Positions 5,232 to 48,930 of a DNA stretch of 51,082 nt are shown here, piece after piece. The notes below the pieces were generated by a model that worked only from the letters and a program-made list of their open reading frames with translations, searched no databases and was not told where the DNA came from. The DNA comes from Clostridiaceae bacterium (GTDB lineage Bacteria > Bacillota > Clostridia > Saccharofermentanales > Saccharofermentanaceae): positions 1 to 51,082 of the forward strand of contig JAAYCT010000041.1 in NCBI GenBank assembly GCA_012729635.1. Reading direction: 5' to 3'. Each line of letters begins with the position of its first letter. Position 1 is the first letter of the stretch. The translations under genes and the position numbers were made by a program.

Positions 5232-5370
5232 CTTGATAAAATCCCCCTTTTCATTTTTCCTCCCTTTTTCGCCACTGATCATGAAACGAATCCAGAGAAG
5301 CGTTTCAAAACGAGTGACGAAGCGGTACAGGCTTATCGCCCAAGTCTTCTATTCTTGAGCTATTAGATAC

Positions 5371-5398
5371 ATTCTAAAATTCGGGGTGAAAACAACAA
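5371..5398 (-). promoter_or_regulatory. Promoter of the binding protein-permease genes
   Basis: On the minus strand TTGTTG (5393-5398), 16-bp spacer, TAGAAT (5371-5376), in the 235-bp gap between the response regulator and the binding protein. The -35 is poor, as expected for an activated promoter. Confidence 0.5.
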
Positions 5399-5401
5399 CC
5401 G

Positions 5402-5428
5402 TACAAAGTATGAAAATACCCCTACAAA
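5402..5428 (-). promoter_or_regulatory. Candidate binding site of the YesN/AraC-type regulator
   Basis: TTTGTA occurs twice on the minus strand (5402-5407 and 5423-5428) exactly 21 bp apart, two helical turns, with the nearer copy 3 bp from the -35 box. This is the usual geometry for an AraC-family activator, whose two helix-turn-helix motifs contact successive major grooves. The regulator gene is immediately upstream. Confidence 0.45.
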
Positions 5429-5466
5429 TTTTGACTATCGGGAAAGGAAAAGCACCTGTTTATGGG

Positions 5467-9579: not shown

Positions 9580-9595
9580 GAAATGCTCCCTTGTG

Positions 9596-10825: not shown

Positions 10826-10901
10826 ATCCGTTTTGCTCCTTCCCAAATTCCTTCGCTCCCGCTTTTTCGCCCGACGCGGGCGAACCATAAACACGTTTCG
10901 G

Positions 10902-12347: not shown

Positions 12348-12393
12348 GTTTCGCTCCTCCCGGTTGATTCATCCTTAATGGTTATCCGAAAAA

Positions 12394-30483: not shown

Positions 30484-32810
30484 TTTTCTCCTCCGATTAT
30501 TTCCACGAGTACCGTTTCCCCGGTAACCGAGAAAACGAAGCCGCGCGAATCCTCTTGCCGGACCGCGCCCGAAATAATGCGCGCCGAAAAACACCCGGGC
30601 AACCATACTTTCGCATGGATCGGCTTTGGTGTGAAGCAAATCGTCAGTTTATTTCCTTCACGAACGCAGGATACTTTAAAGGCTTCTTTTCCTTGATTAT
30701 CCACGACTGCACGCTCCGCCGTTTTTTCTTCCTCCGGAGCGTAAATTGCGAGCATTACGTCTTGTTCGTAATCATATACCGCGCAATCATCGCATTTTCC
30801 GATCGGCAGAATTCTGTTGCCGCGAACATAAAGCGGCAGGGAGTAAAAATCATGGTTTTCGGTTCGCCAGCCTTGCCCGTCGATGGTTTCACCCGTGAAA
30901 TAATTCGTCCACCTTCCCTCGGGCAGGTAAACATCGACCGTATGGTCCCGCCGAAGAACCGGCGCGACTAAAAGCGCGTCGCCGAGCATATACTGTTGAT
31001 CACAGGTTCGGGCGCCGATTTCATTAAACTCCAATACCGTCGCACGCATCACGGGTACTCCGGTTCGGGCAGACTCGACCGCACAAGAATACAGATAAGG
31101 CATCAACTTGCACTTCAGCCGAGTAAAATGTCGGCATACGTCAACCGCCTCCTGACCGAAAAGCCAAGGCACACGGTAAGAATCGGAGCCGTGCAGTCGG
31201 GAATGCGTCGATAGAAGCCCGAACGCCAGCCAACGTTTGTATACGTCCTCGGGCGCAGTTCCCTCAAATCCGCCGATATCATGACTCCAAAAACCAAAAC
31301 CGGAAAGGCACAGCGAGAGTCCGCCTCGAAGGCTTTCCGCCATTGCATGATAGGTTGAATTACAATCCCCTCCCCAATGGACGGGAAACCGCTGAGACCC
31401 GGCCGTAGCACTTCGCGCGAACAGGCAAGCCTGTTCTTCCCCGCGCTCCTCGCAGATTGCTTCATAAACGATTCGGTTATAGAGAAAACTGTAATAATTA
31501 TGCATCCGAACCGGATCCGATCCGTCAAACCAGACACAATCCGTCGGAATACGCTCACCGAAGTCGGTCTTAAAAGAGTCGACACCCTGCCGCATCAGCC
31601 GTTTTAGTTGCTCCTTATACCACGCAACGGTATCCGGGTTCGTAAAATCGTATATCGCAAGTCCCGATTGCCACTGATCTCTCTGCCAGATTCGCCCGTC
31701 GGGACGAGAGAGCAGGAGTCCTTTTTCGAGCAGTTCCGAAAACACCGGCGATTTCTGAGCAATATACGGATTGATCCAGACACAAACGCGGACCCCTCGG
31801 TCATGAATTTTCTTAAGAAGACCTTCAACGTCCGGAAACATGTCGGAGTCCCATTGAAACCCGCACCATTCGTTTTCCTTCATCCAGAAGCAATCGAAAT
31901 GAAAAACCGAAAGTGGAATGCCGCGCTCAATCATACCGTCGATAAAGGAAAGCACTGTTTTTTCATCATATGACGTCGTGAACGAAGAGCTCAGCCAAAG
32001 TCCGAAACTCCATGCGGGCGGAAGACCGGGGCGACCCGTCAGTGCCGTATAGTTTGTCAAAACGTCCTTCATGTCGGAGCCGCCGATGACCATAAAATCG
32101 AGTCGATTTCCGGGGCTCGATATCTGCACGCGTTCGACATGCTCGGAGCAAACCTCGAAGGATACCGGACCGGTGTCACAGACAAAGATTCCATAGCCCT
32201 TGTCGGTGATGTAAAACGGAACGTTTTTGTAAGATATCTCGCTCGCGGTTCCGCCGTCCTCATTCCAAATATCAATCACCTGCCCGTTTCGTACAAACGG
32301 AGTGAAGCGCTCGCCCAGTCCGAATATATGCTCATCGATGTCAATATCCAATTGAACACGCATGAACGGCCCTTCCGGCGCGCATACGAATCCGATCATC
32401 GGTCGACCGAATCGATCGCCGACAGCGGTCAACATGCGGTTTTGATAGAACCATTTGAATTCTGCGGGGTGAAAGCGGATGATCAAGCGGGTGTCCCCGG
32501 ACCGAACCTCCAATTCCTCCTCGTTGATATCCACGGAAAGCAAAGAATGCGCATCACAAATATCAAAACGGGTGTGACGCAGATCATACCCTCTATGGTG
32601 GATCACCTCCGTACGAATAATGTCCGGTTGCGGAGAGGAAATCTCCAGTTCAAAGGCAACACCGTCAAGGCTCCTTCGATTCTCCCGATAGCTGACGCCG
32701 TAAAGCCACAGTCTCGTTTTGTCTTCGGAAAGTCTGTATTCGCGGATTTGCTCGCAATGATCGAGCTTGACGCCCGGTTTGGTTACCCATTCTCCGATGT
32801 TAAATTTCAT
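30477..32810 (-). CDS. Alpha-xylosidase, GH31 (YicI-type)
   Basis: A 777-residue GH31 enzyme strongly resembling E. coli YicI (772 residues). The nucleophile Asp416 lies in FKTDFGERIP and the acid/base Asp482 in HWGGDCNSTY; both fall at the same residue numbers as the known catalytic residues of YicI. The N-terminus KFNIGEWVTKPGV also matches. It removes alpha-1,6-xylose from the non-reducing end of xyloglucan oligosaccharides. The start at 32810 has GGGAG seven bases upstream; a longer reading has no signal peptide either. This gene is the main evidence for xyloglucan as the substrate of the cluster. Confidence 0.95.
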   Translation of the reverse strand: MKFNIGEWVTKPGVKLDHCEQIREYRLSEDKTRLWLYGVSYRENRRSLDGVAFELEISSPQPDIIRTEVIHHRGYDLRHTRFDICDAHSLLSVDINEEELEVRSGDTRLIIRFHPAEFKWFYQNRMLTAVGDRFGRPMIGFVCAPEGPFMRVQLDIDIDEHIFGLGERFTPFVRNGQVIDIWNEDGGTASEISYKNVPFYITDKGYGIFVCDTGPVSFEVCSEHVERVQISSPGNRLDFMVIGGSDMKDVLTNYTALTGRPGLPPAWSFGLWLSSSFTTSYDEKTVLSFIDGMIERGIPLSVFHFDCFWMKENEWCGFQWDSDMFPDVEGLLKKIHDRGVRVCVWINPYIAQKSPVFSELLEKGLLLSRPDGRIWQRDQWQSGLAIYDFTNPDTVAWYKEQLKRLMRQGVDSFKTDFGERIPTDCVWFDGSDPVRMHNYYSFLYNRIVYEAICEERGEEQACLFARSATAGSQRFPVHWGGDCNSTYHAMAESLRGGLSLCLSGFGFWSHDIGGFEGTAPEDVYKRWLAFGLLSTHSRLHGSDSYRVPWLFGQEAVDVCRHFTRLKCKLMPYLYSCAVESARTGVPVMRATVLEFNEIGARTCDQQYMLGDALLVAPVLRRDHTVDVYLPEGRWTNYFTGETIDGQGWRTENHDFYSLPLYVRGNRILPIGKCDDCAVYDYEQDVMLAIYAPEEEKTAERAVVDNQGKEAFKVSCVREGNKLTICFTPKPIHAKVWLPGCFSARIISGAVRQEDSRGFVFSVTGETVLVEIIGGEKC

Positions 32811-32869
32811 GATGATCTCCCTTTCAAATACCGTTTCGAAAAAGGGATCGGTTTGTATCTCGGTCGATC

Positions 32870-33565
32870 TCAATCATCCGGTATATCTTCATTCTCCGAC
32901 TCCGATTTTTCATCGGGTTCCGAAATATCCGCTCTCTCCGAGACCGATCCGCCCTCCGCTTCGATTTTTTTAAACAAATGAATCGCAAAAGTGCTTTTAG
33001 TTACGATCACCAGAACCGGTGCGATAAAAGCGCCGACAAACATCAAAAGCCACCCGTTAAAAAAGAAAATCCAAATCTCTGCCGCGACCGCCAATGTACA
33101 TAGTATCGATCTTCCGAAATAGCGGACAAATATTCGTCTTGAATTGGTTACGTGTCGAAAAAGGCTGTTGCGGTACCGAGCCGCAATCGCAAAAACATAA
33201 AAGAAATGAACATGGACCAAAACCGATGAAAGGATGCCGATAATCAGAAAATAAACCGGGTTTCCCTCCGAGAACTCAAACAGAAAAAAATCAAGAATCA
33301 GAGCCGCGATCAAAACGATATACGCGACCGAAAGTATAATCCCCTGACGCAGATTTTCCTTGAATGCCCTGAAAAAGGGAACCACAATACCCGAGTCAGC
33401 GTCTTCAACGATCTTCAGTCCTACTTCGTAGGCCGCGATTGCGGAAACACCCGCGGTGATGACGGGAATACACCCGATGATAAACAGAAGATTCAGCACA
33501 AACAGATCCCACAACCGGGACAGGAATTGGATTGCCTTATTATCATATGAGAAAAGTCCGGCCAT
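32870..33565 (-). CDS. YesL family (DUF624) membrane protein
   Basis: A 231-residue protein with about five hydrophobic segments and a YesL-type start (FSYDNKAIQFLSRLWDLFVL, then NLLFIIGCIPVITAG). The C-terminal 25 residues are strongly acidic and hydrophilic (about ten Glu/Asp), unlike the copy at 8935-9579. It lies between the binding lipoprotein and GH31. The family co-occurs with sugar importers and YesM/YesN, but no such kinase is in this cluster. Function unknown. Confidence 0.85.
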   Translation of the reverse strand: MAGLFSYDNKAIQFLSRLWDLFVLNLLFIIGCIPVITAGVSAIAAYEVGLKIVEDADSGIVVPFFRAFKENLRQGIILSVAYIVLIAALILDFFLFEFSEGNPVYFLIIGILSSVLVHVHFFYVFAIAARYRNSLFRHVTNSRRIFVRYFGRSILCTLAVAAEIWIFFFNGWLLMFVGAFIAPVLVIVTKSTFAIHLFKKIEAEGGSVSERADISEPDEKSESENEDIPDD

Positions 33566-33641: not shown

Positions 33642-35366
33642 TTACCCGGAAATATCCTTTTGAAGAGAATATCGAACCAATGCTTCCTGCTCACACCATT
33701 CCAGTACTTCCTGATATCCGTACTCATTGCAAAGGCGAATCATTTCCTTCACGTGATATTCGTATTCCTGGTCACTCGTCGCATAGATTGCCCGCCACGA
33801 GTACGTTACTATACATTTGGTCACCTGTTTCCACGTCACCTCCAGCTCGTCACTTCGCTTGGATTCGGAGTAAGACGTTCCGGGAACAACATTATAGTTA
33901 CACATGTTCATGTATTCCTGATTGCTGGTCGCACCCGTAAACTCGCGCCAATCCGCTTCGGTTTCCGATTTCGGCTCGGTCTGCATACTTCGCCACGTTT
34001 GCGCGTTATACGTCTCGTCGTTTGATTCCGGGTTTCGCGCGTCCAACACCCAGGTTGTGTTGTTGATCTGAAGCATTCCGTCGTTAAACGTCGCCCCCAA
34101 CGGATACGTCTTTCCCGTCTCGGCGCTTTTCCATTCTACACTGGCCAGATCATACTGCGGATTTTCATGACAGGCCTGCCCGAGATCGGTAAAACAAGTA
34201 TTTCCCTGCTCATCATAGTACCACATCAAATCTTTAATTCCGTACCAGATTGACATCGCTCCCTCCGGAGAATAAAGCCAATTCAGAATCTCCATACAGA
34301 GTTCGGGATGCTCGGTATCCGCTCCGATTGACCATATCCGATTTCCTCCGAGCACGTTCATTCCATATACGGTGCAGACCGCCTCGGACGGAACGAGCGA
34401 GCACATCATCTTGTTTTCGGCTTGATGCTCGGTCGTATTGTAGGAAATGGATCCGGAATAATTGAAAATAGAGAAAAAGGTTCCGCCGTTCTTGACCTTC
34501 TCGGCCATTTTGTCATAAGTCTGGGTCATCGAATCGGGATCCAAAAGATTGTTCTGATAAAGATTATTGAAAAACTTCAGGCAGGTCAGATACGGTCCGC
34601 CTTCTTCAAGAGTATCATGCAATTCGCCGGTGTTCGGATCATATAGCCCTGCGACCATCTCATCATAACCGTAATAAGCTGTCGCCATCGCCTTCACATA
34701 CATAACCATTGTTCCGTCCCAATCCGGCCACAGGGAAACCGCATAGGTCTCGTTTCCGTTATCGTCCGTCGGGCAGATGTCCTTCATCTTTTTCATCAAC
34801 TCGACATAACTATCCAGGTCGGTTACTTCGGGGTGTCCCAGCTCTTTATAAAGATCCCATCGAATGTCCCAGGTATAGAAAAAACTTTCGTGATCCTCAA
34901 CGCTCGGGGCAAGATTATGACCGATCCCGTGTATCTTTCCGTCGCCGGAAATCTCTCGATTGCTTTCGAGAGCCATTTGTGCGTTATTCCAAATATTCGG
35001 AGCAAATTCCTTACAAAGATCATCCTCTTCCCAATCGAAAAGCATCCCGCGCTCCACAGCCGTTTTATACTCAGATCCGTTCGAGCCCCAGACGACGATG
35101 TCTCCGAGATTTCTGGATTCCATTCGGGTTTCATAGGCACCCTCTTCATCGGGAATGATATTGAGTTGAACATTAAATTTATCCTTGAGAAGCGCGGCGT
35201 ACCATCCGGTCTGAAGCCCGCTCCAGTTTGCCAGCTGTGTGTATACATTCAGGGTAATCAGCTTTTCCTCCCTGGGTTTTTGTTCACACCCGGTCAAGGC
35301 GAGCAACATGACAAAGAGCATGGAAAAAACAAGTAGAAGGCTCAGCAAGCGTTTTTGTATGATCAT
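33642..35366 (-). CDS. Extracellular sugar-binding lipoprotein (xyloglucan-oligosaccharide candidate)
   Basis: A 574-residue solute-binding protein with a signal peptide and lipobox LTGC, lipidated Cys27. Length fits the LplA-type class. The start has GGAGGAG upstream. Aromatic residues are plentiful, including W-rich stretches such as ATAYYGYDE and GTMVMYVKAM in the middle, in keeping with carbohydrate binding, but the ligand cannot be read. It follows two permease genes and precedes YesL. Context (GH31, GH42, GH29, GH94) points to xyloglucan oligosaccharides. Confidence 0.92.
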   Translation of the reverse strand: MIIQKRLLSLLLVFSMLFVMLLALTGCEQKPREEKLITLNVYTQLANWSGLQTGWYAALLKDKFNVQLNIIPDEEGAYETRMESRNLGDIVVWGSNGSEYKTAVERGMLFDWEEDDLCKEFAPNIWNNAQMALESNREISGDGKIHGIGHNLAPSVEDHESFFYTWDIRWDLYKELGHPEVTDLDSYVELMKKMKDICPTDDNGNETYAVSLWPDWDGTMVMYVKAMATAYYGYDEMVAGLYDPNTGELHDTLEEGGPYLTCLKFFNNLYQNNLLDPDSMTQTYDKMAEKVKNGGTFFSIFNYSGSISYNTTEHQAENKMMCSLVPSEAVCTVYGMNVLGGNRIWSIGADTEHPELCMEILNWLYSPEGAMSIWYGIKDLMWYYDEQGNTCFTDLGQACHENPQYDLASVEWKSAETGKTYPLGATFNDGMLQINNTTWVLDARNPESNDETYNAQTWRSMQTEPKSETEADWREFTGATSNQEYMNMCNYNVVPGTSYSESKRSDELEVTWKQVTKCIVTYSWRAIYATSDQEYEYHVKEMIRLCNEYGYQEVLEWCEQEALVRYSLQKDISG

Positions 35367-35408
35367 TTTCTCTCCTCCGTTCATTGCTATTCGTGACAGA
35401 CGTTCGTT

Positions 35409-36347
35409 TTACCCCTTGACCGCTCCGAGCATAATGCCCTTTACAAAGAAACGCTGCATAAAGGGATATACCAACAGAATCGGTAATATGGTCGCCATGG
35501 AGATGGTATACTTCACCACCTTTGAGTTCAATGAGTTGGTCAGCACCTGGCTCGCTCCGCTTCCTCCCTGCATGATCGCCTCGAGATTGGACGCGCTCTG
35601 AAGATACACATACAACCGGTGTTGCAATGTGTACAACTCCGGAGAGCTTTGCATCAGGATCAGCGAATCCTGGAAAGAATTCCAGTTGCCCACGGCGCCG
35701 AAAATTGCGATGGTCGCGAGAATCGGCTTGGCCAGAGGCCAGATAATTTTCCGAAAAATCGTAATCGTTCCCGCTCCGTCCATGATTGCACTTTCCTCAA
35801 GCTCCTTGGGGATGGACTCGATATATGTCTTAACAAGAATGATGTTGTACGGCGCGATGATTCCGGGGATGATATAGGCCCAGAAATTATTCGTCAGTCC
35901 GAGCATCAGCATGTTCAGATACCAGGGAATCAGACCTGCGTTAAAATACATCGTAATCACTAAGAATCGATACCACAGGCTTCGGTGCCAGAGCTTATGC
36001 TTTGTGACCAAGTACCCCGCAAATCCGCTGGCGGCCACCATCAGAGCGGTGCCGAGGACGGTTCGGGCTATCGTGACTAGAAATGAATTGCCGAGATCGC
36101 TGACATCCCGAAGCGCCAGGTAATTGGACAGGTTGATCCCGACCGGGTAAAAATTAATCAACCCCTTGCCCACCAAATCGTTATCCGAGATCGTGTTGAT
36201 AAACAAATAGTAAAACGGAAAGATACAAATCAGCGAAAAGATCGAAAAAACAGCGATGTTAAAAACATCGAACACGATGTCCGTCGTGCCGCGTCGAAAC
36301 CTCGGCGGACCGGATTCTTTAATATTGATTGTCACTTCGTTATCCAT
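35409..36347 (-). CDS. Carbohydrate ABC transporter permease (LplC-like)
   Basis: A 312-residue permease with six predicted membrane segments. The EAA loop is ELEESAIMDGAGTITIFRKI, which docks the ATPase, and the C-terminus ends GIMLGAVKG as in LplC/YtcP. It lies 9 bp after its partner permease and 42 bp before the binding protein. No ATPase gene is in the cluster. Confidence 0.92.
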   Translation of the reverse strand: MDNEVTINIKESGPPRFRRGTTDIVFDVFNIAVFSIFSLICIFPFYYLFINTISDNDLVGKGLINFYPVGINLSNYLALRDVSDLGNSFLVTIARTVLGTALMVAASGFAGYLVTKHKLWHRSLWYRFLVITMYFNAGLIPWYLNMLMLGLTNNFWAYIIPGIIAPYNIILVKTYIESIPKELEESAIMDGAGTITIFRKIIWPLAKPILATIAIFGAVGNWNSFQDSLILMQSSPELYTLQHRLYVYLQSASNLEAIMQGGSGASQVLTNSLNSKVVKYTISMATILPILLVYPFMQRFFVKGIMLGAVKG

Positions 36348-36356: not shown

Positions 36357-37826
36357 CTAGATAATATTTTCGCCCCGAAGCGCTTTGGAAGCGCGGTTTG
36401 CAAAAAACAACAGGGCGACGCTGACCAGGGATTTCGCCATGCCGACCACCGTTGACAACGGAATTCTACCGTCCGTGATTCCGATGTTGTACACATATAA
36501 GTCAAGGACTTCGATTTTATCTCGGTTCAGTGCATTGGAAAATACCAGATACTGCTCCATTCCGTTGGACAGGATCCCCGCGATTGCCATCAGCAGAAGA
36601 ACGAAATAGGTCGGAAGAAGACTTGGAATCACGATGTGCCGAATTCTGCCGAACCGCCCGGCTCCGTCGATGGTGGCTGCCTCATAAAGCTGAGGATCGA
36701 TTCCGGCGATTGCCGCGATATAGATAATCGCACTCCAGCCGATCCCTTTCCAGATCCCCCAAAGAAGCATTTTTATCCATGTATTATCCGCGCTCATCAA
36801 CCAATTGATCTGCGAGTCCGGGCCGAACGGAAGCATGCTCAATAGCCCGTTCAGGAACCCGTCCGTCGAAAAGATCGCTAATGCAATCGCATAAATCAAA
36901 ACCCAACTGATAAAGTTTGGAATCGTCGTAAGCGTCTGAACCAATCGCTTAAACCGATTGCTTCGGATTTCGGTCAAAAATATCGCAAACGCCATCGGCA
37001 ACCAACTGGTAATCAGTCCGAGACCGCTCATAATCAATGTGTTTCGCATAACCCGAGCGATATCCTTGACGGTCGCGGAATTTTGAAATAAAAACCGAAA
37101 CCACTTCAATCCGACAAAGGACTCCCGGCCGAGCGTCCCGCCGGCCGTGTAGTCAAAAAAAGCATAGCGCCATCCCCACAGAGGAAGATAAGCAAACACG
37201 AATGCCAACGCAATCATCGGAAGAAACATCAAAAACAGAGCATACTTTTCCTCCATCCGCATCTTTTCTTCAAGCACCTTCGTACGGAGCCACAGAAGCA
37301 AAGAAAGAGAGAGGATGAGAATCAGAATGGCCACCGCGGAATATATGTAAAAACCGGAAGAAAAATTCGGTTCGATCCGACTCGGGTGTTCGGTCGTCGC
37401 AACCTGAGAGTAAGCGAGAAAAATCCCGACAAGACCGGGAAGCATCAGTGCGGATCCTGCTGCGGAAAATTGAAGTCCGCGCTTTCTCATCCGGTTGTTT
37501 CCAAGCGACATGCATCCGCCGATTCCGCAAAAAACCGAACCCGAAATAATCACGATCGCTGAAATCATCAGCAGAATAAAACTGCCCTTTTGAACCCATC
37601 CCTGTGTAAATGCGCGCCCCAGATTTTGCGTGATTCCCGAAAAGGAAACGCCGGTGGTCAGAAGCGAAGCATACGGGCTGATTTTAAGGGAAATCCGTCC
37701 GGGATTAAACGCCGGAAAAAACATCATAATGAAGGCAAACACAATCAGAATCCGATAGAACCAATACACCGTCATGACCGGTGTAATCGGAGCCCTCAAT
37801 CGTATTTCGGTTTCTTCTTTTTTCAT
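36357..37826 (-). CDS. Sugar ABC transporter permease (LplB-like) with an extra N-terminal membrane domain
   Basis: A 489-residue protein, about 190 residues longer than usual. The C-terminal part from about residue 195 is a standard permease with EAA loop YEAATIDGAGRFGRIRHIVI. Before it lie four hydrophobic segments (about residues 20-38, 82-104, 119-139, 160-181) with a short loop containing FNPGRISLKISPYASLL. I recognise no named domain there. The start at 37826 uses AAGGA ten bases upstream; an ATG seven codons earlier lacks one. It is the first gene of the importer set, separated from the surface protein gene by two hairpins. Confidence 0.88.
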   Translation of the reverse strand: MKKEETEIRLRAPITPVMTVYWFYRILIVFAFIMMFFPAFNPGRISLKISPYASLLTTGVSFSGITQNLGRAFTQGWVQKGSFILLMISAIVIISGSVFCGIGGCMSLGNNRMRKRGLQFSAAGSALMLPGLVGIFLAYSQVATTEHPSRIEPNFSSGFYIYSAVAILILILSLSLLLWLRTKVLEEKMRMEEKYALFLMFLPMIALAFVFAYLPLWGWRYAFFDYTAGGTLGRESFVGLKWFRFLFQNSATVKDIARVMRNTLIMSGLGLITSWLPMAFAIFLTEIRSNRFKRLVQTLTTIPNFISWVLIYAIALAIFSTDGFLNGLLSMLPFGPDSQINWLMSADNTWIKMLLWGIWKGIGWSAIIYIAAIAGIDPQLYEAATIDGAGRFGRIRHIVIPSLLPTYFVLLLMAIAGILSNGMEQYLVFSNALNRDKIEVLDLYVYNIGITDGRIPLSTVVGMAKSLVSVALLFFANRASKALRGENII

Positions 37827-37864
37827 GACGATTATGTCCTTTTTCATACTGAGTATATATCAGT

Positions 37865-37893
37865 CGACCGATCTGTGTCTCGATTATCGGTCG
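37865..37893 (-). other. Intergenic stem-loop
   Basis: CGACCGAT (37865-37872) pairs with ATCGGTCG (37886-37893), loop 13 nt, between the surface protein and permease genes. Confidence 0.5.
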
Positions 37894-37916
37894 GCTAAAA
37901 CCTGAGGAGGATTCTC

Positions 37917-37947
37917 CCCGGTCCGCCCGTTTGAGGGGCGGACCGGG
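37917..37947 (-). other. GC-rich intergenic stem-loop after the surface protein gene
   Basis: CCCGGTCCGCCC (37917-37928) pairs perfectly with GGGCGGACCGGG (37936-37947) around a 7-nt loop. No T tract follows on the minus strand, so it is more likely a processing or attenuating hairpin than a full terminator. It would let the surface protein be made in excess over the permeases. Confidence 0.7.
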
Positions 37948-37959
37948 AAGACAAGAGCT

Positions 37960-40167
37960 TTATTTAGGGGATTTCTTGCTCTTCTTCTTCAAAACCATCG
38001 CACCGGCGCTCCCGCCGCCTATTGCGACCACACCGCCAACGACAATCGCGACGATCGCTCCGGTCGACAGACCGTCTTTTTCCGAATCAGGCTCCTCGAC
38101 TGCGGGCGCCTGCGTGGGCGCCGGAGTCGCAGTCGCTTCGGGCGCATCCGCATCCTTCGTAAGACCGCTGATCGTGAACGTGATCTCGATTCCGGTTTTG
38201 GGCATCGCAGAATACGCGACCGTTTCAACGCCGACCTCGGCATTGTATTCGTTGATCAGCGCGATTTGAGCGTAGTCGCCCTTGGTGTCGACATAGGTGA
38301 ATTCCGCCGCCTTTCCTCCGTCGAAGGAAACACTGACGTTTTCGATCTTCACAAGTCCGTCGTCGATCAGTTTCGAGGGGATATTGGTCGAAGCAAACAG
38401 CATCCGAAATGCCTCATCCGTTCCGAAGCCCATGTCCCCGAGCGTAACGCTCACGGTATATGTTCCGTTTCCGATAATTTTTGCGTCGGTAAACGATCCG
38501 CCGTAGTCGACCTCATTTCCGTCCGCGTCCCAACCGGTCAGATGCGTCCAGTTGGCGGTCTCGATCCCGTAGCTGTCACTCCACGCATTACGGAAAATGT
38601 AACTGGTGGTCTGAACACCGAAATAGGCATCGTAATCCGCCGCAAGAGCTGCCTCGATATCGATTTCGACAACCTCCTCAACCTTTTCGGGCGGAGCGTA
38701 GATGTAATCGAAATTGATCTCGATGGTTTCTACGTCCGTAAACGCCGTCTTGTCCACGATAATCCAACCGGAATCGTCGACCTTTCCGTCGTAACTTCTC
38801 GCATCCTTCGGAAGCTCGGTCACCCACTCGTTAAAGATATTCATCCGTGTGACGACTCCCTCGTCGGTGCTCGTATAGCCCTTGGTGAAGGGAACATCCG
38901 CCCCGTTGATTTTGAAAGACTTGATTTTGATCGTGTACCCGGGATGTGTTTGTTCTCCGGTAAGAATTCCGAGCGCGGCAAACGCAACATCCGCCGCCTT
39001 CCCGTCTGCCGTTTCCGTGAAATCGAGCGCGACAGTGTAGTTGCCCTCTCCCTCGACTGCGGCATCCGTTGTGATAATGCCGGTGTCTACCGGTTCGCCC
39101 CAATACTGAAGTCCCCAAGCGGAATCGGCGTACATGATGAACGCCGTATCCGGCCCGAAGTAAGGCGGCGCGTAGCGGAAAGTCACTTCGATTGTTTTGA
39201 CCGAATCGAAAAGTTCTTTATCGACAATAATCCATGAGGCATCCGTCGTGTCTCCGTCGGAGCTTCTCGCGTCCTCCGGAAGCTCGGCCACCCACTCATT
39301 GTAGATATTCATCCGCGTGACGATTCCATCGTCGGAGCTGGTGTAACCTTTTGTAAATTCGATGTCCTTGCCGTTGATTTTGATGGAAGAGATGGTGATG
39401 CAGTAACCCGAACGTGCCGTTTCTCCGTTATTGATCCCGACTGCCGCAAAAGCAAGTCCCGAGGCGGCCTTGTCCGCAGTATTCGAGAAATCCAATCCGA
39501 CGGTATACTCACCGGCTCCTTTTATCGTCGCTTTGGTCGCGACGATGTCGGATTCGGCGCCGTCGTTCCAGTACTGATAGGTCCAGTTCGCATCCGCATA
39601 CATCAGGAAAGCCTCAACCGGCATCCCCTCGCTTAACTCGAACATGATCTCAACAGTAGTCACCTCGGCAAAATCCTCCTTGTCAACGATAACCGGAGAA
39701 GTATCCGAGATTTTTCCGTCATAGCTTCTCGCGTCTTCGGGAAGTTCGGTCACCCATTCGTTATAGACGTTCATACGGGTGACGACTCCGTCGTCCGAGC
39801 TGGTGTAGCCTTTCGAAAACTCGATCTCTTCGCCGTTGATTCGAATCGACTTGATTTCGATACACCAACCCGGCATCGTGGTTTCGCCGTTTACGATCCC
39901 GATGGCCGTAAAGGCCAGACCGGAAGCGACTTTATCCTCGGTTTTCGAAAAATCGAGACCGACGGTGTACGTACCCGCGCCCGTGATCGTCGCTTTGGTC
40001 GCAACAATGTCGGATTCACTACCGTCGTTCCAGTACTGGTATTTCCAACCTGCGTCGGCATACATCAGATATGCTTCGTCCTGCACTTCCTCCGCCGCGA
40101 GCACAGTCGGCGCAATGCCGATCAGCAAAACAGCGGCGATCAGCAATGATAACAATTTCCTTTTCAT
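37960..40167 (-). CDS. Surface-anchored multi-module carbohydrate-binding protein candidate
   Basis: A 735-residue secreted protein. After a signal peptide ending VLAAEE come three tandem modules of about 147 residues with motifs YTSSDDG, NEWV..LP.DAR and YTVGLDF, then a diverged fourth module (about residues 512-666). A Pro/Thr/Ala/Glu-rich linker follows, then a Gly/Val-rich membrane anchor and the tail KKKSKKSPK, so the modules face outwards. There is no catalytic domain. The same module ends the GH5 enzyme of this locus, which argues that it binds polysaccharide. I do not recognise the family; CBM65 or a related xyloglucan-binding family is a guess. Start chosen at 40167 (AGGAG ten bases upstream) over 40176. 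Confidence 0.85.
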   Translation of the reverse strand: MKRKLLSLLIAAVLLIGIAPTVLAAEEVQDEAYLMYADAGWKYQYWNDGSESDIVATKATITGAGTYTVGLDFSKTEDKVASGLAFTAIGIVNGETTMPGWCIEIKSIRINGEEIEFSKGYTSSDDGVVTRMNVYNEWVTELPEDARSYDGKISDTSPVIVDKEDFAEVTTVEIMFELSEGMPVEAFLMYADANWTYQYWNDGAESDIVATKATIKGAGEYTVGLDFSNTADKAASGLAFAAVGINNGETARSGYCITISSIKINGKDIEFTKGYTSSDDGIVTRMNIYNEWVAELPEDARSSDGDTTDASWIIVDKELFDSVKTIEVTFRYAPPYFGPDTAFIMYADSAWGLQYWGEPVDTGIITTDAAVEGEGNYTVALDFTETADGKAADVAFAALGILTGEQTHPGYTIKIKSFKINGADVPFTKGYTSTDEGVVTRMNIFNEWVTELPKDARSYDGKVDDSGWIIVDKTAFTDVETIEINFDYIYAPPEKVEEVVEIDIEAALAADYDAYFGVQTTSYIFRNAWSDSYGIETANWTHLTGWDADGNEVDYGGSFTDAKIIGNGTYTVSVTLGDMGFGTDEAFRMLFASTNIPSKLIDDGLVKIENVSVSFDGGKAAEFTYVDTKGDYAQIALINEYNAEVGVETVAYSAMPKTGIEITFTISGLTKDADAPEATATPAPTQAPAVEEPDSEKDGLSTGAIVAIVVGGVVAIGGGSAGAMVLKKKSKKSPK
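38170..38634 (-). repeat. Diverged fourth module of the surface protein
   Basis: It shares GNGTYTVSVTL and an alternating beta pattern with the other three but replaces the NEWV region by INEYNAEVG. Probably the same beta-sandwich fold with a changed binding face. Confidence 0.55.
38704..39144 (-). repeat. Module copy 3 of the surface protein
   Basis: Carries AWGLQYWGE, YTSTDEGVVTRMN and IFNEWVTELPKDAR. It keeps the YW pair and the NEWV Trp. Confidence 0.85.
39175..39615 (-). repeat. Module copy 2 of the surface protein
   Basis: Carries NWTYQYWND, YTSSDDGIVTRMN and IYNEWVAELPEDAR. It is the copy closest to copy 1. Period to copy 3 is 468 bp. Confidence 0.85.
39637..40077 (-). repeat. Module copy 1 of the surface protein
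   Basis: First of three repeated modules. It carries GWKYQYWND, the conserved YTSSDDGVVTRMN and VYNEWVTELPEDAR. Period to copy 2 is 462 bp. Aromatics W44, Y48 and W49 and the Trp of NEWV (numbering from the ATG at 40176) are candidate sugar contacts. Confidence 0.85.
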
Positions 40168-40242: not shown

Positions 40243-43167
40243 CTAAAGAAAGATCTGAATCCGGTGCTCCGAACCGTCTTTCGGAGTTCGGATCACGCTC
40301 GTACAGGATGTACCGTCCAACACGAATCGCGATTCCTCCCCGACCCGAAATGAGCCCTTTTCACTCTCTATATCCACCGTCAAAGCGGTTCCGTCCTGAT
40401 CCGGATTGAGCCTGTACGTAAGACTCTTTTGCCCCTCTCGTAAAACCGGCGAAAAAGTGATCGTGTCTTTTTCCTGCCGAATTCCGAACGCTTCAAATAC
40501 GGCGAGTGTAAGCCACGATGCCGTTCCGGAGAGAATGGGGCCGATGTTTTCTCCGGTCTCACTGTTGTTGTATTGTGTGCAATATCGAGGGTTTCCTTTC
40601 GTGATAAAAGGAGTTTCGATCGTCTTATAGGGAAGCGTTTTATCAATCATGAAATATGCAAGCGAAGAGAGCCGTGCGGCCAGCGATTCGTTTTTTACCG
40701 CTCGCGCGGCCTTGAGTGCGGCAACGCTTGCCATCATCGCGGCATGCTTAAAAACGCCGCCGTTTTCCCGGTCCCCCGGAAAATAGATGGCCGTTGCGGT
40801 GTTTGCTCCGAGAAGATCAAAGTCGATCAGCGTGCAAAGCTTCAGTCCGGCGTCGGTTTTCAGGTGCTTCTCCACCACCTCGAGCATCCGCTCAATCTGT
40901 TCTTCATCCGCAATGTCCGCAAGGATCGACCAGCTGAATGAATTGAGAAAGTAACTTCCGTCGATTGCCGGATCCGCGGAAAGCCCGTCGCCTCCGGCCC
41001 CGAGATAAGTGTATCCGCCGTCGCGACCGTCATTGATCAGAGCTCGCGCAAAATAATCACCTTTCCATGCGTATTTATACATGGTGTCCCTGATCCTGAG
41101 CGAAAGATCGGATGCCGCTTTTCCGTCCGTTTCCCTGGCGATTCTTCCCGATAAGGCAGAAACCTGATCCGCCGCGATTTTAAGAAGACAGGCGTTCATA
41201 CAGCTTTCGGAAAGCGTATTTTCCCACGGAACACCCCACCTTTCGCCGGTCTCTTCAAGTTGTCGACGGTAGGCGGCTTCCTTGGCGGGACCTTTGAGAC
41301 AATGATTGTCGAGGCGCAACGTATCGTTCCAGTCTGCCTTGTCCAAAAGCGGCAAACCGTGTGCTCCGACGGAAATGTTTCCGCAAAATACGAGAATCGC
41401 ATTCAGCGTATCCCAAACGCTTCGATTGCCGTCATTTTCGGCGACCGGATATTCTTCCGAAAGAAAATCGGTGTCGCCGGTCAGTGTTACATAACGATAG
41501 ACCGCCGGAACCAGCCACAGGGGATCATCCGAGCAATCTCCCGGTTCCTTCCCGACTCTCGTGAAATCATGGTTGGCGTATCCGGCGCGGAAAACGTTTC
41601 GGACCCACATGGAAATCAACTCGCGAACCGTCTCGGCCTTTCCGGCGGCAACCATGTAATACATGGATGCGTATATATCCTGAATTTCCCGAAAGCCGGT
41701 CTCCCGATAGGCCTTTTGGGTCCATCCGAATGCACGGGAAACATGCGTCTGATAATAGACCTGGAACGGAAGGGTCGATCCGATATACGTGTCAAAAAAC
41801 GGATCTTCGGTTACCGGACGCAAATACGCGGACAGCACATCCTGCTTTGTACGGAGACGTTTCAACGCATCCGGAACGGCGCCCGGTTCGACGAATTTCC
41901 GATAGAGATTCCATAGTTCTTCGTCCAAAGCCGGATCGGGATCATTTTTGTTCGGATCCGTACTCATTCCGATATAACTGTCAAAATCCCGGTGTTGATC
42001 CGGATCGATCGAAAATGATTTTCCCATGGAGAAAAACGGCGCGCATTTACGCTCCGGTCGGGACGGGAAACGCGCGATTAACGCGGGGTCCCGAAGACTT
42101 CTCCCGCCGAGAAAAGCCGTAAGATTCATGCAATAATCATCCATCGTCTCGCCTTCGGAAAGGATCATGGCGAAGCGTTTCTCGTCCGCAAAATTTTTCG
42201 GTTTACTGTGAAGCGAGAGCGCGACCGGATGTCCGTCGAGCATGATCTGTTCGCTCTCATGAACGATATTGGCGAAAATCACGTCATTAACGGTCGTAAT
42301 CGGTGAACAAAGACTGAACATTCCGGTAAATACAATCCGGAGATTTCTCTTTCGACCGGATCGGTTCTCGACGCGGACACGCTGAACTTCAACGGCCTCG
42401 GGCAGTCCGTCTTCCTGCGGAAGGATGAAAATCGTTCTGGAAACCGAAAGCCCACAGTTGGTCCGATAGAATATTTCGCTTATGTTTCGTCCGTGCCTGC
42501 AGCAAGCGCTTTCGACATTATTGCTCGCATCCGCCGAATAGAAAATCGGGCGACCGTTTTCGACCAGATAGAACTGACGGTTGACCGGCTCGCCGTTTTC
42601 TTCCGGGGATAAGGTATACCGCGTCGCGAGAACCTGCGTCGCTCCCCCCGCGCGAAACGAACCGGCTCCGAAAGCGTCAACGGCACTTTTGGGAGTTGTA
42701 TACAGCGGCTCCGGATATCCCTCACGGTCTCCGATCAAAAGATTCACCGCATAATGAGAACCGACGGGATATGCCTTCAAATCGATGACATGATCGCCGT
42801 TTTCATCAATACGGCCGCGGCTGTTAACGATTCTTGTATAATGATCGACTATGGCGAGCGAAGCGATCTCGTCGATTGATTTTTCACCGTCCGGAGTAAT
42901 AAGTGAAACAGAACCGTTTAAAAATATAAACAAATAATGCGTATCGTTATCGCTTTCGATGAGGCGAAGAACATCCGGATCCGACATCAGTTTCTCACAG
43001 ATCGGCGCCGCAAAAGGAAGTCCGGTCGCTCCGACTGCGAAAATCGAGTCCGCGCTCAACCATTCCGCATCCGTAAACCCGCTGAAACGCGCCGAATTAA
43101 AATGATTCATAAGAACGTCGAGCGCTGTTATCCTTTTGTCTCGGGCTTTGATTCGTTCAAAACGCAT
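40243..43167 (-). CDS. GH94-like glycoside phosphorylase (cellodextrin phosphorylase candidate)
   Basis: A 974-residue enzyme of the GH94 type (often auto-named GH36-type). The catalytic-loop motif DCSDDPLWLVP puts the candidate general acid at Asp547 or Asp548; KADWNDTLRL and the C-terminal GPILSGTASWLTLAVFEAFG are also GH94-like. It would split cello-oligosaccharides with phosphate to give glucose-1-phosphate. The length fits cellodextrin phosphorylases (about 980) better than cellobiose phosphorylases (about 810). In this locus it would consume the glucan backbone left after side-chain removal. Exact specificity is not certain. Start at 43167 (GAGG nine bases upstream), 13 bp after the LacI stop. 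Confidence 0.85.
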   Translation of the reverse strand: MRFERIKARDKRITALDVLMNHFNSARFSGFTDAEWLSADSIFAVGATGLPFAAPICEKLMSDPDVLRLIESDNDTHYLFIFLNGSVSLITPDGEKSIDEIASLAIVDHYTRIVNSRGRIDENGDHVIDLKAYPVGSHYAVNLLIGDREGYPEPLYTTPKSAVDAFGAGSFRAGGATQVLATRYTLSPEENGEPVNRQFYLVENGRPIFYSADASNNVESACCRHGRNISEIFYRTNCGLSVSRTIFILPQEDGLPEAVEVQRVRVENRSGRKRNLRIVFTGMFSLCSPITTVNDVIFANIVHESEQIMLDGHPVALSLHSKPKNFADEKRFAMILSEGETMDDYCMNLTAFLGGRSLRDPALIARFPSRPERKCAPFFSMGKSFSIDPDQHRDFDSYIGMSTDPNKNDPDPALDEELWNLYRKFVEPGAVPDALKRLRTKQDVLSAYLRPVTEDPFFDTYIGSTLPFQVYYQTHVSRAFGWTQKAYRETGFREIQDIYASMYYMVAAGKAETVRELISMWVRNVFRAGYANHDFTRVGKEPGDCSDDPLWLVPAVYRYVTLTGDTDFLSEEYPVAENDGNRSVWDTLNAILVFCGNISVGAHGLPLLDKADWNDTLRLDNHCLKGPAKEAAYRRQLEETGERWGVPWENTLSESCMNACLLKIAADQVSALSGRIARETDGKAASDLSLRIRDTMYKYAWKGDYFARALINDGRDGGYTYLGAGGDGLSADPAIDGSYFLNSFSWSILADIADEEQIERMLEVVEKHLKTDAGLKLCTLIDFDLLGANTATAIYFPGDRENGGVFKHAAMMASVAALKAARAVKNESLAARLSSLAYFMIDKTLPYKTIETPFITKGNPRYCTQYNNSETGENIGPILSGTASWLTLAVFEAFGIRQEKDTITFSPVLREGQKSLTYRLNPDQDGTALTVDIESEKGSFRVGEESRFVLDGTSCTSVIRTPKDGSEHRIQIFL

Positions 43168-43180
43168 GATGTCTGACCTC

Positions 43181-44185
43181 TTATTCAAGGATTCGACGAA
43201 CAGAATCGCCGATCTGAAGCGATCCGCGAACGGTTATCATCGTATGGATTTTTTCGTCGGGTTTTTCGATCTGTTCGATCAACAGATCAATCGCCTTCCG
43301 CCCGATCTCTTCAACATTCTGTCGATATGTGGTAAGACGCGGACGCAACATTTCAGCCAGATGGATTCCGTCATAACCCACCGCACTAATATCTCCGGGA
43401 ACGGACAAACCGTGTTTCTCGATCTCCGACAGGCCGCCCATATAGGAGTAATCGTCCGGGTACAATATGCATGTCGGGGGCTCGCTGAGCGAAAGGAGCG
43501 CTCGTGTCGCCAAACCGCTTTCTTTCGGTTTGTGGTATTTGGCTCCCAGAACATATTCCTCCGGGACTTTGATTCCAAGTTCCATACATCCTTTGTAGAA
43601 ACCGGACAGGCGCTTTTGCGTAACCGCGCTTTGCTCTTCTCCGTGAATAAAGGCAATTCGCCTGTGACCCAACCGATTTACATACTCTAGAATTTCCGTC
43701 ATGCTCCGGACATTTTCGGACATGATCGACGGACACTCGGAGAATACATGGTCAATCACTACGGTGGGGAGATCGCAGGTCGCCAATTCGACAACCTGCG
43801 GATCTTCGAATCGAGCCTGCGCGATCACCACACCGTCACAACTTCGGTAGGAGGCATGCTTCAGAAAACTCATTTCGGAGTTTCCGATTTTATTGCTGAT
43901 AAAAGTGATGTCGTATCCCAGGGATTGAGCGGCTTCGCGGATACTGTCGAGGACCAGTGAAAAGTATTCGTGCTTTAATTGATCGGCAAACAGCACACCG
44001 ATGTTATAGGATCGGTTGGTCTTAAGATATCGGGCTGCCGCATTCGGGTGATACCCGATATCGTGCGCGATCCTTCGAATGCTTTCGGCGGTTTCGGGGT
44101 TGACGTCGGGCTGTCCGTTTAACGCTTTGGATACCGTCGAAACGGACACTCCGCAGATATCGGAAAGATCTTTGATGGTGACCAT
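43181..44185 (-). CDS. LacI family transcriptional regulator
   Basis: A 334-residue repressor. Residues 1-50 are the LacI helix-turn-helix and hinge (VTIKDLSDICGVSVSTVSKA, then RRIAHDIGYHPNAAARYLKT). A periplasmic-binding-protein-like effector domain follows (IGVLFADQLKHEYFSLVLD). It is the first gene of the xyloglucan cluster, followed by GH94. GGAGGG lies nine bases before the ATG. A perfect 18-bp operator sits on its own transcription start, so it is likely autoregulated and released by a sugar, perhaps a cello- or xylogluco-oligosaccharide. Confidence 0.95.
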   Translation of the reverse strand: MVTIKDLSDICGVSVSTVSKALNGQPDVNPETAESIRRIAHDIGYHPNAAARYLKTNRSYNIGVLFADQLKHEYFSLVLDSIREAAQSLGYDITFISNKIGNSEMSFLKHASYRSCDGVVIAQARFEDPQVVELATCDLPTVVIDHVFSECPSIMSENVRSMTEILEYVNRLGHRRIAFIHGEEQSAVTQKRLSGFYKGCMELGIKVPEEYVLGAKYHKPKESGLATRALLSLSEPPTCILYPDDYSYMGGLSEIEKHGLSVPGDISAVGYDGIHLAEMLRPRLTTYRQNVEEIGRKAIDLLIEQIEKPDEKIHTMITVRGSLQIGDSVRRILE

Positions 44186-46831: not shown

Positions 46832-46932
46832 GTTGGCCTCCATTCGCGCTGATCCTTTGAAGAAAAGCCACTTACAGGAACACACCGCATTCCCGCACAG
46901 GCGGGCACCGGACACAAACGGCGCCTGTCCAT

Positions 46933-47013: not shown

Positions 47014-48843
47014 TTACTCGCCCGGTATATAGTCGAAAGTGATCTCGATCGTTTGGATCCGTCTGAGGCGTTCGGTCCGATTGTCGATGATCACCGCGGA
47101 GACTTCGGAAAGATCTCCAGACTTATTTCTTGCTTCTTCCGGGATGATTTCCACCCATCCGTTATACAGATTGACCCGGGTACAGATTCCGTCGTCGCTG
47201 GTTGTAAAAGGCTCGGCAATCGGTTGATAGATTCCACCGTTTATCTTGATTTCCCTGATTTCGATGAGATATCCCGGGAAAAGCAATTCTCCGTTTGCGA
47301 TCGCCAGCGCGGAGAAGGCTGTGCTGTTGGCATATCCGAGTTCCGTTCCGGTAAAATCCAACCCCACGGTATAGGTGCCGGCTCCCTTGATTTCAACGTC
47401 GGTCGCAACCAAACCGTCGCTTTTGGATGTCGGATCATAAAGATCACCGACACTGTAGCTGAGCGTCCAATCATTACTGTTGAACATGATCCATGCAACC
47501 GCAATTTCGTCGCCGATGGTAATCGTTACTCCGGCTTCCGCGGCCGCGGCATCGGCAAGAACAGCGGCGGCCAGCGCTGCTTCCATCCGGCTCGTCGCGG
47601 CGTTTCGGATATCCTCCCTCTTCATTTTCGATTGAGTCGAAAGGCTCCTTTGAGAAAAGAAATCCGCGACGCCCGGATCAAAGAATCCGGGGTCTTTTCG
47701 GATAAAAAGACTGCTGCAATCCCAAAGAACCGGACAAAACCCGTAAAGATCACAATTATCGAGTAAATTCTCGAAAAACATGACCGTGTTTTCTTTGACT
47801 GATCCGTCGGACATCAATGCAACCATATACTCGCCGATAACGATTCCGATTCCTTGGTCGGAAAATTTGCGCATCATTGCGAGAAGCTCGTTTTGCTCCT
47901 TATATTCCCTCTCCTTGCCCCAACGTGAAACGCTCGGACCACCGCAGAAGCCCCACGGTGTATAGTAGTGTACGGAAAGGAGCAATCGATCTTCAGCTGT
48001 ATCGTTCGGCATCGAAAAACGATCGTCACAGGTCGCTTTGATGTCGGTATTATACCCGGCAATAAGCAAAAACCGTTTCGCATTGTTTCCGCCCGTGCCG
48101 CGTACCGTATCGACGAAGGCCTGATTGATCCGGTTCGCCGTTTCATAACACTGATCTTTGGAAAGTGTACCGGAGTCCGGGCTGAGGTCGACATCGTTCA
48201 ATCGGTCGCCCAACTCTTCGTTGGCCGATTCGAAGATTAAATAATCCGAGTATTCCTTGTAACGCCCGGCGATCTGCGTCCACATCGACACATAAAGATC
48301 CATGGCCGCCTCGCGGGTTTCTTTTTTCGCCGATCCGAACATACCCCACCAGCCGCCGTCCCAGTGATCGTTAACGATCACGTACATGTCTTCGTTCAGG
48401 GCGTAGTTGATAATCTCTTCAACCCGATTCAGATAGTCTTCGCGGATCGTGTAATCACCGGACTCGAAATTCATCGCGTTCGTCCATGCGACCGGAATTC
48501 GAAGCGTATCGAATCCCGCCGTCTTCATCGCAGTAACCATCTCCTGCGTCGTCTCCGGTTGACCCCAGTAGGTTTCATAACGGACGACGGAAGCCGCAGT
48601 CCCGAGTTCTTTTCTTCCGTACGCCTCCATGGTATTCCCGAGATTAATCCCGTTTCCCATGAGAACAACGACTTCCGAAGAAGTCAATTCCTCGCGGATT
48701 CGGCCGTCGTCCATGGTATCGATTCCGTTTTGTGATTCATGAAGAACCTTTTTTGCGGACTTGTCGGCGCATCCCGCCATCGGGAAAATTCCAAACAAGA
48801 ACAAAGCCGCGCAAAAAAGCACAAGCATTTTGCGTAGTAACAT
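47014..48843 (-). CDS. Extracellular GH5 (subfamily 4-like) endoglucanase/xyloglucanase lipoprotein
   Basis: A 609-residue lipoprotein (lipobox PMAGC, Cys25) with a GH5 barrel at about residues 55-395. Motifs GINLGNTMEAYG, RYETYWGQPETT and FDTLRIPVAW fit subfamily 4, known for xyloglucanases, lichenases and cellulases. Acid/base Glu209 lies in FESANEELGD and nucleophile Glu338 in GIVIGEYM. An Ala-rich linker leads to a C-terminal module (about 446-605) also found in the surface protein of this locus. It should make oligosaccharides at the cell surface. The start at 48843 has GAGGAG seven bases upstream. Confidence 0.93.
   Translation of the reverse strand: MLLRKMLVLFCAALFLFGIFPMAGCADKSAKKVLHESQNGIDTMDDGRIREELTSSEVVVLMGNGINLGNTMEAYGRKELGTAASVVRYETYWGQPETTQEMVTAMKTAGFDTLRIPVAWTNAMNFESGDYTIREDYLNRVEEIINYALNEDMYVIVNDHWDGGWWGMFGSAKKETREAAMDLYVSMWTQIAGRYKEYSDYLIFESANEELGDRLNDVDLSPDSGTLSKDQCYETANRINQAFVDTVRGTGGNNAKRFLLIAGYNTDIKATCDDRFSMPNDTAEDRLLLSVHYYTPWGFCGGPSVSRWGKEREYKEQNELLAMMRKFSDQGIGIVIGEYMVALMSDGSVKENTVMFFENLLDNCDLYGFCPVLWDCSSLFIRKDPGFFDPGVADFFSQRSLSTQSKMKREDIRNAATSRMEAALAAAVLADAAAAEAGVTITIGDEIAVAWIMFNSNDWTLSYSVGDLYDPTSKSDGLVATDVEIKGAGTYTVGLDFTGTELGYANSTAFSALAIANGELLFPGYLIEIREIKINGGIYQPIAEPFTTSDDGICTRVNLYNGWVEIIPEEARNKSGDLSEVSAVIIDNRTERLRRIQTIEITFDYIPGE
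47029..47508 (-). repeat. C-terminal module of GH5, homologous to the surface-protein modules
   Basis: It carries GAGTYTVGLDF, FTTSDDGICTRVN and LYNGWVEIIPEEAR, matching the surface-protein modules at 38704-40077. It lacks the second Trp of the YW pair and has an insertion before GLVATDVEI. This link between a glucanase and a non-catalytic protein is the main support for a carbohydrate-binding role. Confidence 0.8.
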
Positions 48844-48930
48844 AAACATTCTCCTCAATATGAAATAATCGGTTCGCTGTTCTCCTTTTATGTGTATGGG
48901 CCGATCGATATTGAGGCTTTGGGTGCCCTC

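What the first reader, a model, noticed from the sequence alone, without database searches (positions are those of the whole stretch)
37960..40167. Surface capture protein held by a C-terminal membrane helix and lysine tail, not a sortase motif
The protein ends in a Pro/Thr/Ala/Glu-rich linker, a Gly/Val-rich helix and KKKSKKSPK. There is no LPxTG. The four modules would stand just above the membrane near the binding lipoprotein and the GH5 lipoprotein, forming a Gram-positive counterpart to SusD/SGBP proteins.
Basis: partly seen in the sequence, partly recalled or inferred. Interest (0 to 1): 0.6.

Follow-up and report, generated by a model that had tools for sequence, protein, structure and literature searches.

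The report
Membrane-tethered sugar-capture protein beside sugar importer
A Clostridia-type bacterium makes a non-enzyme surface protein of four binding-type modules that probably holds plant xyloglucan next to the pump that imports it; relatives keep the same gene beside the same pump while changing how the protein is held on the cell.

Summary
The frame at 37960-40167 (-) encodes a signal peptide, three tandem ~155-aa modules (54-72% identical), a divergent fourth module, a Pro/Thr/Ala/Glu linker, a Gly/Val-rich hydrophobic stretch and KKKSKKSPK, without LPxTG. The module has no Pfam or PDB sequence match and also ends the GH5 lipoprotein of the locus, which looks like a xyloglucan locus (alpha-xylosidase, GH42, GH29, GH94, GH5, ABC importer).

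New here: of 43 relatives, 39 of the 40 with enough flanking DNA have homologues of the same ABC permeases directly downstream. The tail is interchangeable: LPxTG in three relatives, a hydrophobic-plus-lysine tail in this protein and four relatives, no C-terminal anchor in 35. All 8 tailed proteins have a lipoprotein SBP partner; 20 of 24 readable partners of untailed ones lack a lipobox. This genome has no detectable sortase, and the gene is missing from its syntenic site. A strong hairpin follows the gene in 38 of 43 cases.

Best reading: a membrane-held glycan-capture protein serving an importer. It works like an SGBP but is not a SusD homologue. Ligand binding and membrane retention are inferred, not shown.

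The parts
37960..40167 (-). capture protein gene (735 aa from ATG 40167; 738 aa from ATG 40176)
40096..40167 (-). signal peptide MKRKLLSLLIAAVLLIGIAPTVLA, no lipobox Cys
   Evidence: cleavage site read by eye
39619..40086 (-). module 1
39157..39621 (-). module 2 (modelled alone, pLDDT 96.9)
38686..39159 (-). module 3
38149..38661 (-). divergent module 4, conserved in most relatives
38077..38148 (-). Pro/Thr/Ala/Glu-rich linker
37990..38058 (-). Gly/Val-rich hydrophobic stretch AIVAIVVGGVVAIGGGSAGAMVL
   Evidence: hydropathy; not modelled with confidence
37963..37989 (-). basic tail KKKSKKSPK
37913..37951 (-). intercistronic hairpin, 16-nt arms, 7-nt loop, no U-tract
36357..37847 (-). ABC permease perm2a with a ~200-aa N-terminal extension
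35409..36347 (-). ABC permease perm2b
33642..35384 (-). solute-binding lipoprotein SBP2 (lipobox ALTGC)
30477..32873 (-). GH31 alpha-xylosidase (NF007940, 1078 bits, cut-off 606)
28534..30639 (-). GH42 beta-galactosidase
25865..27331 (-). GH29 alpha-L-fucosidase
40243..43188 (-). GH94-type phosphorylase
43181..44185 (-). LacI-type regulator
47014..48858 (-). GH5 lipoprotein whose C-terminus (47017-47511) is one module of the same family

Best explanation
The gene encodes a non-catalytic glycan-capture protein that serves an ABC importer for xyloglucan (or related beta-glucan) oligosaccharides. The protein is exported by Sec and cut by signal peptidase I. Its C-terminal hydrophobic stretch and six lysines stop transfer and leave four beta-sandwich modules outside on a flexible linker, in the zone where the GH5 lipoprotein and the SBP2 lipoprotein also sit. 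The modules bind the polymer or long oligosaccharides that GH5 cuts; GH5 carries one module of the same family. Products pass to SBP2, are imported, and are taken apart by GH42, GH31, GH29 and GH94. A hairpin after the gene keeps the capture protein abundant relative to the permeases. Shown by computation: the modules, the module shared with GH5, the gene linkage, the hairpin, the absence of a sortase, anchor swapping among relatives. Inferred: membrane retention, ligand binding, hand-over, the effect of the hairpin.
For: Module shared with GH5 at 40-44% identity. Permease homologues next on the same strand in 39 of 40 relatives with at least 1 kb of downstream DNA, also at 32-35% identity and under a different regulator. 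GH5-type gene with one module on the same contig 5.6-8.0 kb away in 19 of 43 genomes, and directly after SBP2 in 7 of 10 loci read at length. Alpha-xylosidase, GH42, GH29, GH94 in the window. No sortase in the genome, gene missing at its syntenic site. LPxTG tails in the same place in three relatives. All 8 tailed proteins have SBP2 with a lipobox. Hairpin after the gene in 38 of 43, against 3 of 24, 4 of 38 and 3 of 33 after neighbouring genes.
Against: No binding data. The module matches no known carbohydrate-binding family and its fold neighbours are unspecific. The helix is Gly-rich and marginal on a rough scale. 35 relatives have no C-terminal tail. The alpha-xylosidase model hits only 17 of 43 relatives' genomes, so xyloglucan cannot be taken as the ligand of the whole family. 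Four related transporter loci have no capture gene, so it is not needed for transport as such.
Confidence: 0.56

Rival explanations
1. The tail does not hold: the protein is released and acts as a secreted binding protein or adhesin, as relatives without a C-terminal anchor may do.
For: 35 of 42 relatives with a readable end lack a C-terminal tail; most of these have a signal peptidase I type start. The helix is marginal.
Against: In the untailed group 20 of 24 readable SBP2 partners and 5 of 7 GH5 partners also lack a lipobox, so that group seems to differ as a whole; in this genome both partners are lipoproteins. A few untailed relatives have what looks like an uncut N-terminal segment.
Confidence: 0.15
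2. The C-terminus is a cleaved sorting signal of another kind (a GLSTG-like remnant or another motif) that is processed by an unidentified transpeptidase or protease, so the protein ends up wall-linked or otherwise attached.
For: Motif, hydrophobic stretch and basic tail have the general build of a sorting signal; LPxTG stands at the same place in L011, L012 and L014, and GLS(T/G/A)G recurs in L071, L080 and L090, whose genomes have sortases.
Against: No PF04203 sortase in this genome. Such a tail was found only once in an 18% sample of the genome, so there is no sign of a dedicated sorting system with many substrates. Other enzyme families were not searched for.
Confidence: 0.14
3. The modules are protein-protein scaffolds: modules of this protein and of GH5 associate, so the protein gathers the enzyme at the transporter without binding glycan itself.
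For: The same module family sits on GH5 and on the capture protein; no match to known carbohydrate-binding families.
Against: A C-terminal accessory beta-sandwich on a secreted glycoside hydrolase is usually a binding module (general knowledge); conserved Trp and Tyr positions would suit sugar binding, though they may be core residues.
Confidence: 0.12

Closest known systems
Xyloglucan oligosaccharide ABC system of Ruminiclostridium cellulolyticum (PMC4780118; Discussion section and search passages seen)
   Same: GH42 and GH31 enzymes, two permeases and a binding lipoprotein without an ATPase gene beside them, import of large xyloglucan oligosaccharides followed by cytosolic breakdown.
   Different: There: cellulosomal enzymes, GH3 beta-glucosidase, two-component system; no separate surface capture protein is mentioned in what I read. 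Here: GH5 lipoprotein, GH94, LacI, and the capture gene.
Xyloglucan ABC importer Athe_2052-2054 of Anaerocellum bescii (PMC12710961; abstract and search passages seen)
   Same: Gram-positive xyloglucan oligosaccharide importer beside a GH31 alpha-xylosidase.
   Different: No stand-alone surface binder is mentioned in the passages seen; the authors contrast such systems with those that have surface glycan-binding proteins.
Bacteroides ovatus XyGUL surface glycan-binding proteins with SusC/SusD (known to me from passages in PMC12710961 and from memory)
   Same: Non-catalytic binders encoded with a GH5 and the uptake system for xyloglucan.
   Different: SusD fold or multi-domain lipoproteins at an outer membrane with a TonB-dependent transporter; no homology found here.
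Ruminococcus bromii Sas20 and the related wall-anchored RBR protein (PMC9112005; search passages seen)
   Same: Non-catalytic polysaccharide-binding proteins at a Gram-positive surface.
   Different: Starch; dockerin or sortase attachment; the paper says the genomic context of the wall-anchored one does not further imply function, whereas here the gene is linked to an importer.

Membership tests
SusD / surface glycan-binding proteins of Bacteroidota | match to a SusD or SGBP Pfam family | tested here: not met
   No such family among the matches of the window protein or of 33 aligned relatives.
SusD / surface glycan-binding proteins of Bacteroidota | N-terminal lipoprotein anchor | tested here: not met
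   Signal peptide has no lipobox Cys.
SusD / surface glycan-binding proteins of Bacteroidota | encoded beside a SusC-type transporter | tested here: not met
   Neighbours are ABC permeases and a binding lipoprotein.
LPxTG sortase-anchored surface protein | LPxTG-type motif before the hydrophobic stretch | tested here: not met
   GLSTG stands there instead.
LPxTG sortase-anchored surface protein | sortase in the genome | tested here: not met
   0 matches to PF04203 in a 96.65% complete genome; flanks of the sortase of its genus adjacent.
type I single-pass membrane protein (signal peptide, outside part, C-terminal stop-transfer helix) | hydrophobic segment followed by positive charge near the C-terminus | tested here: met
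   KD19 mean 2.12, six Lys in the last nine residues; marginal on a rough insertion scale with values from memory.
type I single-pass membrane protein (signal peptide, outside part, C-terminal stop-transfer helix) | stays in the membrane | not testable with these tools
   Needs fractionation.
known carbohydrate-binding module family | match to a family profile or solved relative by sequence | tested here: not met
   No Pfam CBM match at cut-off, no PDB sequence relative with a 76-row profile. CAZy itself was not at hand.
known carbohydrate-binding module family | shared fold | tested here: inconclusive
   All-beta model; best Z 5.5 (3wno, 108 aligned, 3.6 A), carbohydrate-binding modules at Z 4.0-4.3 among unrelated rows.
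known carbohydrate-binding module family | binds carbohydrate | not testable with these tools
   Needs binding assays.
Gram-positive xyloglucan utilisation locus of the R. cellulolyticum kind | alpha-xylosidase, GH42, permeases and binding lipoprotein together | tested here: met
Gram-positive xyloglucan utilisation locus of the R. cellulolyticum kind | GH3 beta-glucosidase and two-component regulator in the cluster | tested here: not met
   GH94 and LacI stand here instead.

The most novel reading that the evidence does not exclude
Clostridia have evolved a dedicated, non-catalytic glycan-capture subunit for an ABC importer: modules of an undescribed carbohydrate-binding family, shared with the partner GH5, genetically linked to the permeases, made in excess through an intercistronic hairpin, and kept on the cell by whichever anchor the lineage has (sortase signal, membrane tail, N-terminal segment). 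It would be a functional equivalent, by convergence, of the Bacteroides surface glycan-binding proteins.
Probability: 0.42. Interest if true: 0.75.

Novelty: new variant of a known kind. Interest (0 to 1): 0.57.

Why it matters
A survey of Roseburia and Eubacterium rectale found no SusC/SusD homologues and supposed that polysaccharide binding is left to modules on the enzymes (PMC5320581, passages). A separate capture protein linked to an importer would change that picture for xyloglucan or beta-glucan use in Clostridia, would give a candidate new binding-module family, and offers a natural comparison of different anchors on one protein. The prediction is directly testable with recombinant modules.

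Tried and rejected
Composition as cause of the tail: rejected, since a 386-kb sample of the genome has no second convincing case. Assembly gap as cause of the missing sortase: rejected, since the flanks are adjacent in mid-contig without N. 'Sortase loss explains this kind of tail': not supported in general, because the three Lachnospiraceae genomes with the lysine-type tail have sortases, and the genome of L012 (LPKTG) showed none (completeness of these genomes not given). 'Xyloglucan only': weakened, alpha-xylosidase model in 17 of 43 relatives' genomes. 'Obligate transporter part': rejected by 4 of 4 transporter loci without it. 'The untailed group cannot make lipoproteins': rejected, Lgt is found in 43 of 44 genomes searched. 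Hairpin as ordinary terminator: only 3 of 43 have six or more U in the nine bases after the stem, and genes follow. Fold searches with the full-length model and in the viral library gave no usable neighbour; a family not listed there is not excluded. SBP2 has no PDB relative by phmmer at E 0.001. Paper searches; searches returned no paper; nothing describing this protein was seen in the listings. That something is not in print is claimed for these searches only.

Limits of the counts: the genome scan kept the best 80 of 189 confirmed stretches, so counts concern that part; 43 of these are of the capture type. Many relatives are close kin, so counts are not independent events. For linkage, 3 of 43 (L023, L028, L032) were dropped for lack of downstream DNA. 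For tails, L032 has no readable end. For SBP2 starts, 24 of the 35 untailed relatives were readable: 20 have no lipobox-like Cys, 4 (L021, L025, L027, L045) are ambiguous; L071, L080, L090 and the four starts L019, L021, L026 and L035 were read by eye. GH5 starts of the untailed group were read by eye (7 read, 2 ambiguous: L152, L160). The 10 loci were picked by me: 9 of the 19 with capture gene and GH5-type gene on one contig, plus one with an alpha-xylosidase near the gene. The eight hairpins first folded in relatives were picked; one search covers all 43 with 110 nt at hand. Lipobox pattern, insertion-scale values, GH5_4 label, malE-malF comparison and general facts on SusD and sorting signals are recalled.

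Full report
What is there. Its start at 40167 is preferable to the longest start at 40176, because GGAG lies 10 nt before the former and 1 nt before the latter. The product has a signal peptide without a lipobox, three tandem modules of about 155 residues (72, 54 and 57% identical), a fourth divergent module, a short Pro/Thr/Ala/Glu linker, a 23-residue Gly/Val-rich hydrophobic stretch and KKKSKKSPK. The full-length model shows four all-beta domains and leaves the tail unmodelled; module 2 alone models at pLDDT 96.9.

What the modules are. No Pfam or NCBIfam family reaches its cut-off and no PDB sequence matches, even with a profile of 76 modules. Structure comparison gives only the common beta-sandwich arrangement: best Z 5.5 (108 residues aligned, 3.6 A) to a C-terminal domain of a cycloisomaltooligosaccharide glucanotransferase (3wno), with several carbohydrate-binding modules at Z 4.0-4.3 among unrelated rows; in the full-length model, modules 1 and 4 fall on the same kind of neighbour. 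The same module ends the GH5 lipoprotein of the locus, at 40-44% identity to modules 1-3. A carbohydrate-binding role is the natural inference from that, but no more than an inference.

The locus. Around the gene lie GH29, GH42 and GH94, an alpha-xylosidase that passes NCBIfam's cut-off with 1078 bits, a GH5 that resembles glucanases and xyloglucanases in the PDB (the GH5_4 label is recalled), two permeases, a binding lipoprotein and a LacI regulator. This is much of the enzyme set of the xyloglucan system of R. cellulolyticum, with GH94 in place of GH3 and LacI in place of a two-component system (PMC4780118, Discussion and passages).

Relatives. Of 189 confirmed stretches in genome contigs the best 80 were kept. 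There the module has two homes: GH5 proteins with one C-terminal module, and 43 proteins without a catalytic domain that have two or three modules and, in most, the fourth one. In this genome's own family the module is rare: 2 of 115 genomes.

Linkage. Of the 43, 40 have at least 1 kb right of the stop; 39 of these have permease homologues (perm2a or perm2b) next on the same strand. The exception, L043, lies in a genome with a second copy in the usual setting. The linkage persists at 32-35% identity of the capture protein and across a change of the upstream gene from LacI to a histidine kinase. A GH5-type gene with one module is on the same contig 5.6-8.0 kb away in 19 of 43 genomes. In 10 loci read at length, the order capture, perm2a, perm2b holds in 10; 7 go on with SBP2 and the GH5 with module; two Lachnospiraceae have that GH5 upstream with GH29 and a GH31; one has the alpha-xylosidase after SBP2. 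The reverse does not hold: four loci with the same transporter type have no capture gene. The capture protein is thus a frequent accessory of this importer type, not an obligate subunit.

Anchors. L011, L012 and L014 end in LPGTG or LPKTG, a hydrophobic stretch and a basic tail. L015 has QPNTG, a strong hydrophobic stretch and KKKKNDK. The window protein, L071, L080 and L090 have GLS(T/G/A)G, a hydrophobic stretch and a lysine tail. The other 35 with a readable end stop right after the last module; a few of these start with what looks like an uncut hydrophobic segment followed by a long coiled or charged stretch. The 8 tailed proteins all have SBP2 partners with a lipobox, whereas 20 of 24 readable SBP2 partners of untailed ones have none and 4 are ambiguous; of 7 GH5 partners read in the untailed group, 5 lack it and 2 are ambiguous. 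Anchoring therefore varies as a property of the whole cassette.

Sortase. PF04203 finds nothing in this genome, with the control search ringing in 3 of 14 named genomes. It finds a sortase in 108 of 113 genomes of the family, including both other genomes of the genus. In G005 the gene stands between carA and dnaA (gene names by my reading). In this genome the two flanks match contig 35 at adjacent bases, with the stretch that holds the sortase missing and no N. The absence is real. It makes wall linkage by a classical sortase unlikely here. It does not by itself prove membrane retention, and the Lachnospiraceae relatives show that the lysine tail can occur with sortases present.

Hairpin. A hairpin with 16-nt arms stands between the capture gene and the permease gene (37913-37951). 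Taking 110 nt after the stop in the window and 42 relatives, 38 of 43 fold more stably than shuffles with z below -2, against 3 of 24 after LacI, 4 of 38 after perm2a and 3 of 33 after perm2b. U-tracts are rare (3 of 43). A stabilising or attenuating element that raises the capture protein over the permeases is the likely role; the comparison with the malE-malF hairpin is recalled.

Verdict on the reading. It is not a SusD homologue. The membrane tail is likely but unproven, and it is one of several endings used by this family. A Gram-positive survey supposed that binding is left to enzyme-borne modules (PMC5320581, passages), and a 2025 preprint on a Gram-positive xyloglucan importer contrasts such systems with those having surface binders (PMC12710961, abstract and passages); nothing found in my searches describes this protein.

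Noticed in passing
36357-37847 (N-terminal part 37246-37826): The permease next to the capture gene has a ~200-aa hydrophobic N-terminal extension without a Pfam match; related extensions occur in 4 of 391 class genomes, this one included.
   Followed up: partly
37862-37896: A second inverted repeat (11-nt arms) between the hairpin and the permease start, perhaps an operator or a small hairpin.
   Followed up: no
L081:1746-3461 and L055:5591-7252: Two other proteins with three tandem modules and a hydrophobic-plus-lysine C-terminus stand beside GH5-with-module genes; their modules match the family weakly or not at all.
   Followed up: partly
L151, L152, L154-L157, L159, L160: Rumen Clostridia whose ABC binding protein SBP2 lacks a clear lipobox; how such a binding protein is kept at the cell is unexplained.
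   Followed up: partly
genomes of L013, L016-L050: Many of these genomes have several matches to the prolipoprotein transferase family Lgt (up to 8).
   Followed up: no
1367-15332: A second cluster in the window with GH10, GH51, GH43, an esterase-like gene, its own ABC permeases and binding protein, and a sensor/regulator pair; looks like arabinoxylan use.
   Followed up: no
45857-46915: A 352-aa lipoprotein-like ORF between the regulator and GH5 with no Pfam family above cut-off.
   Followed up: no
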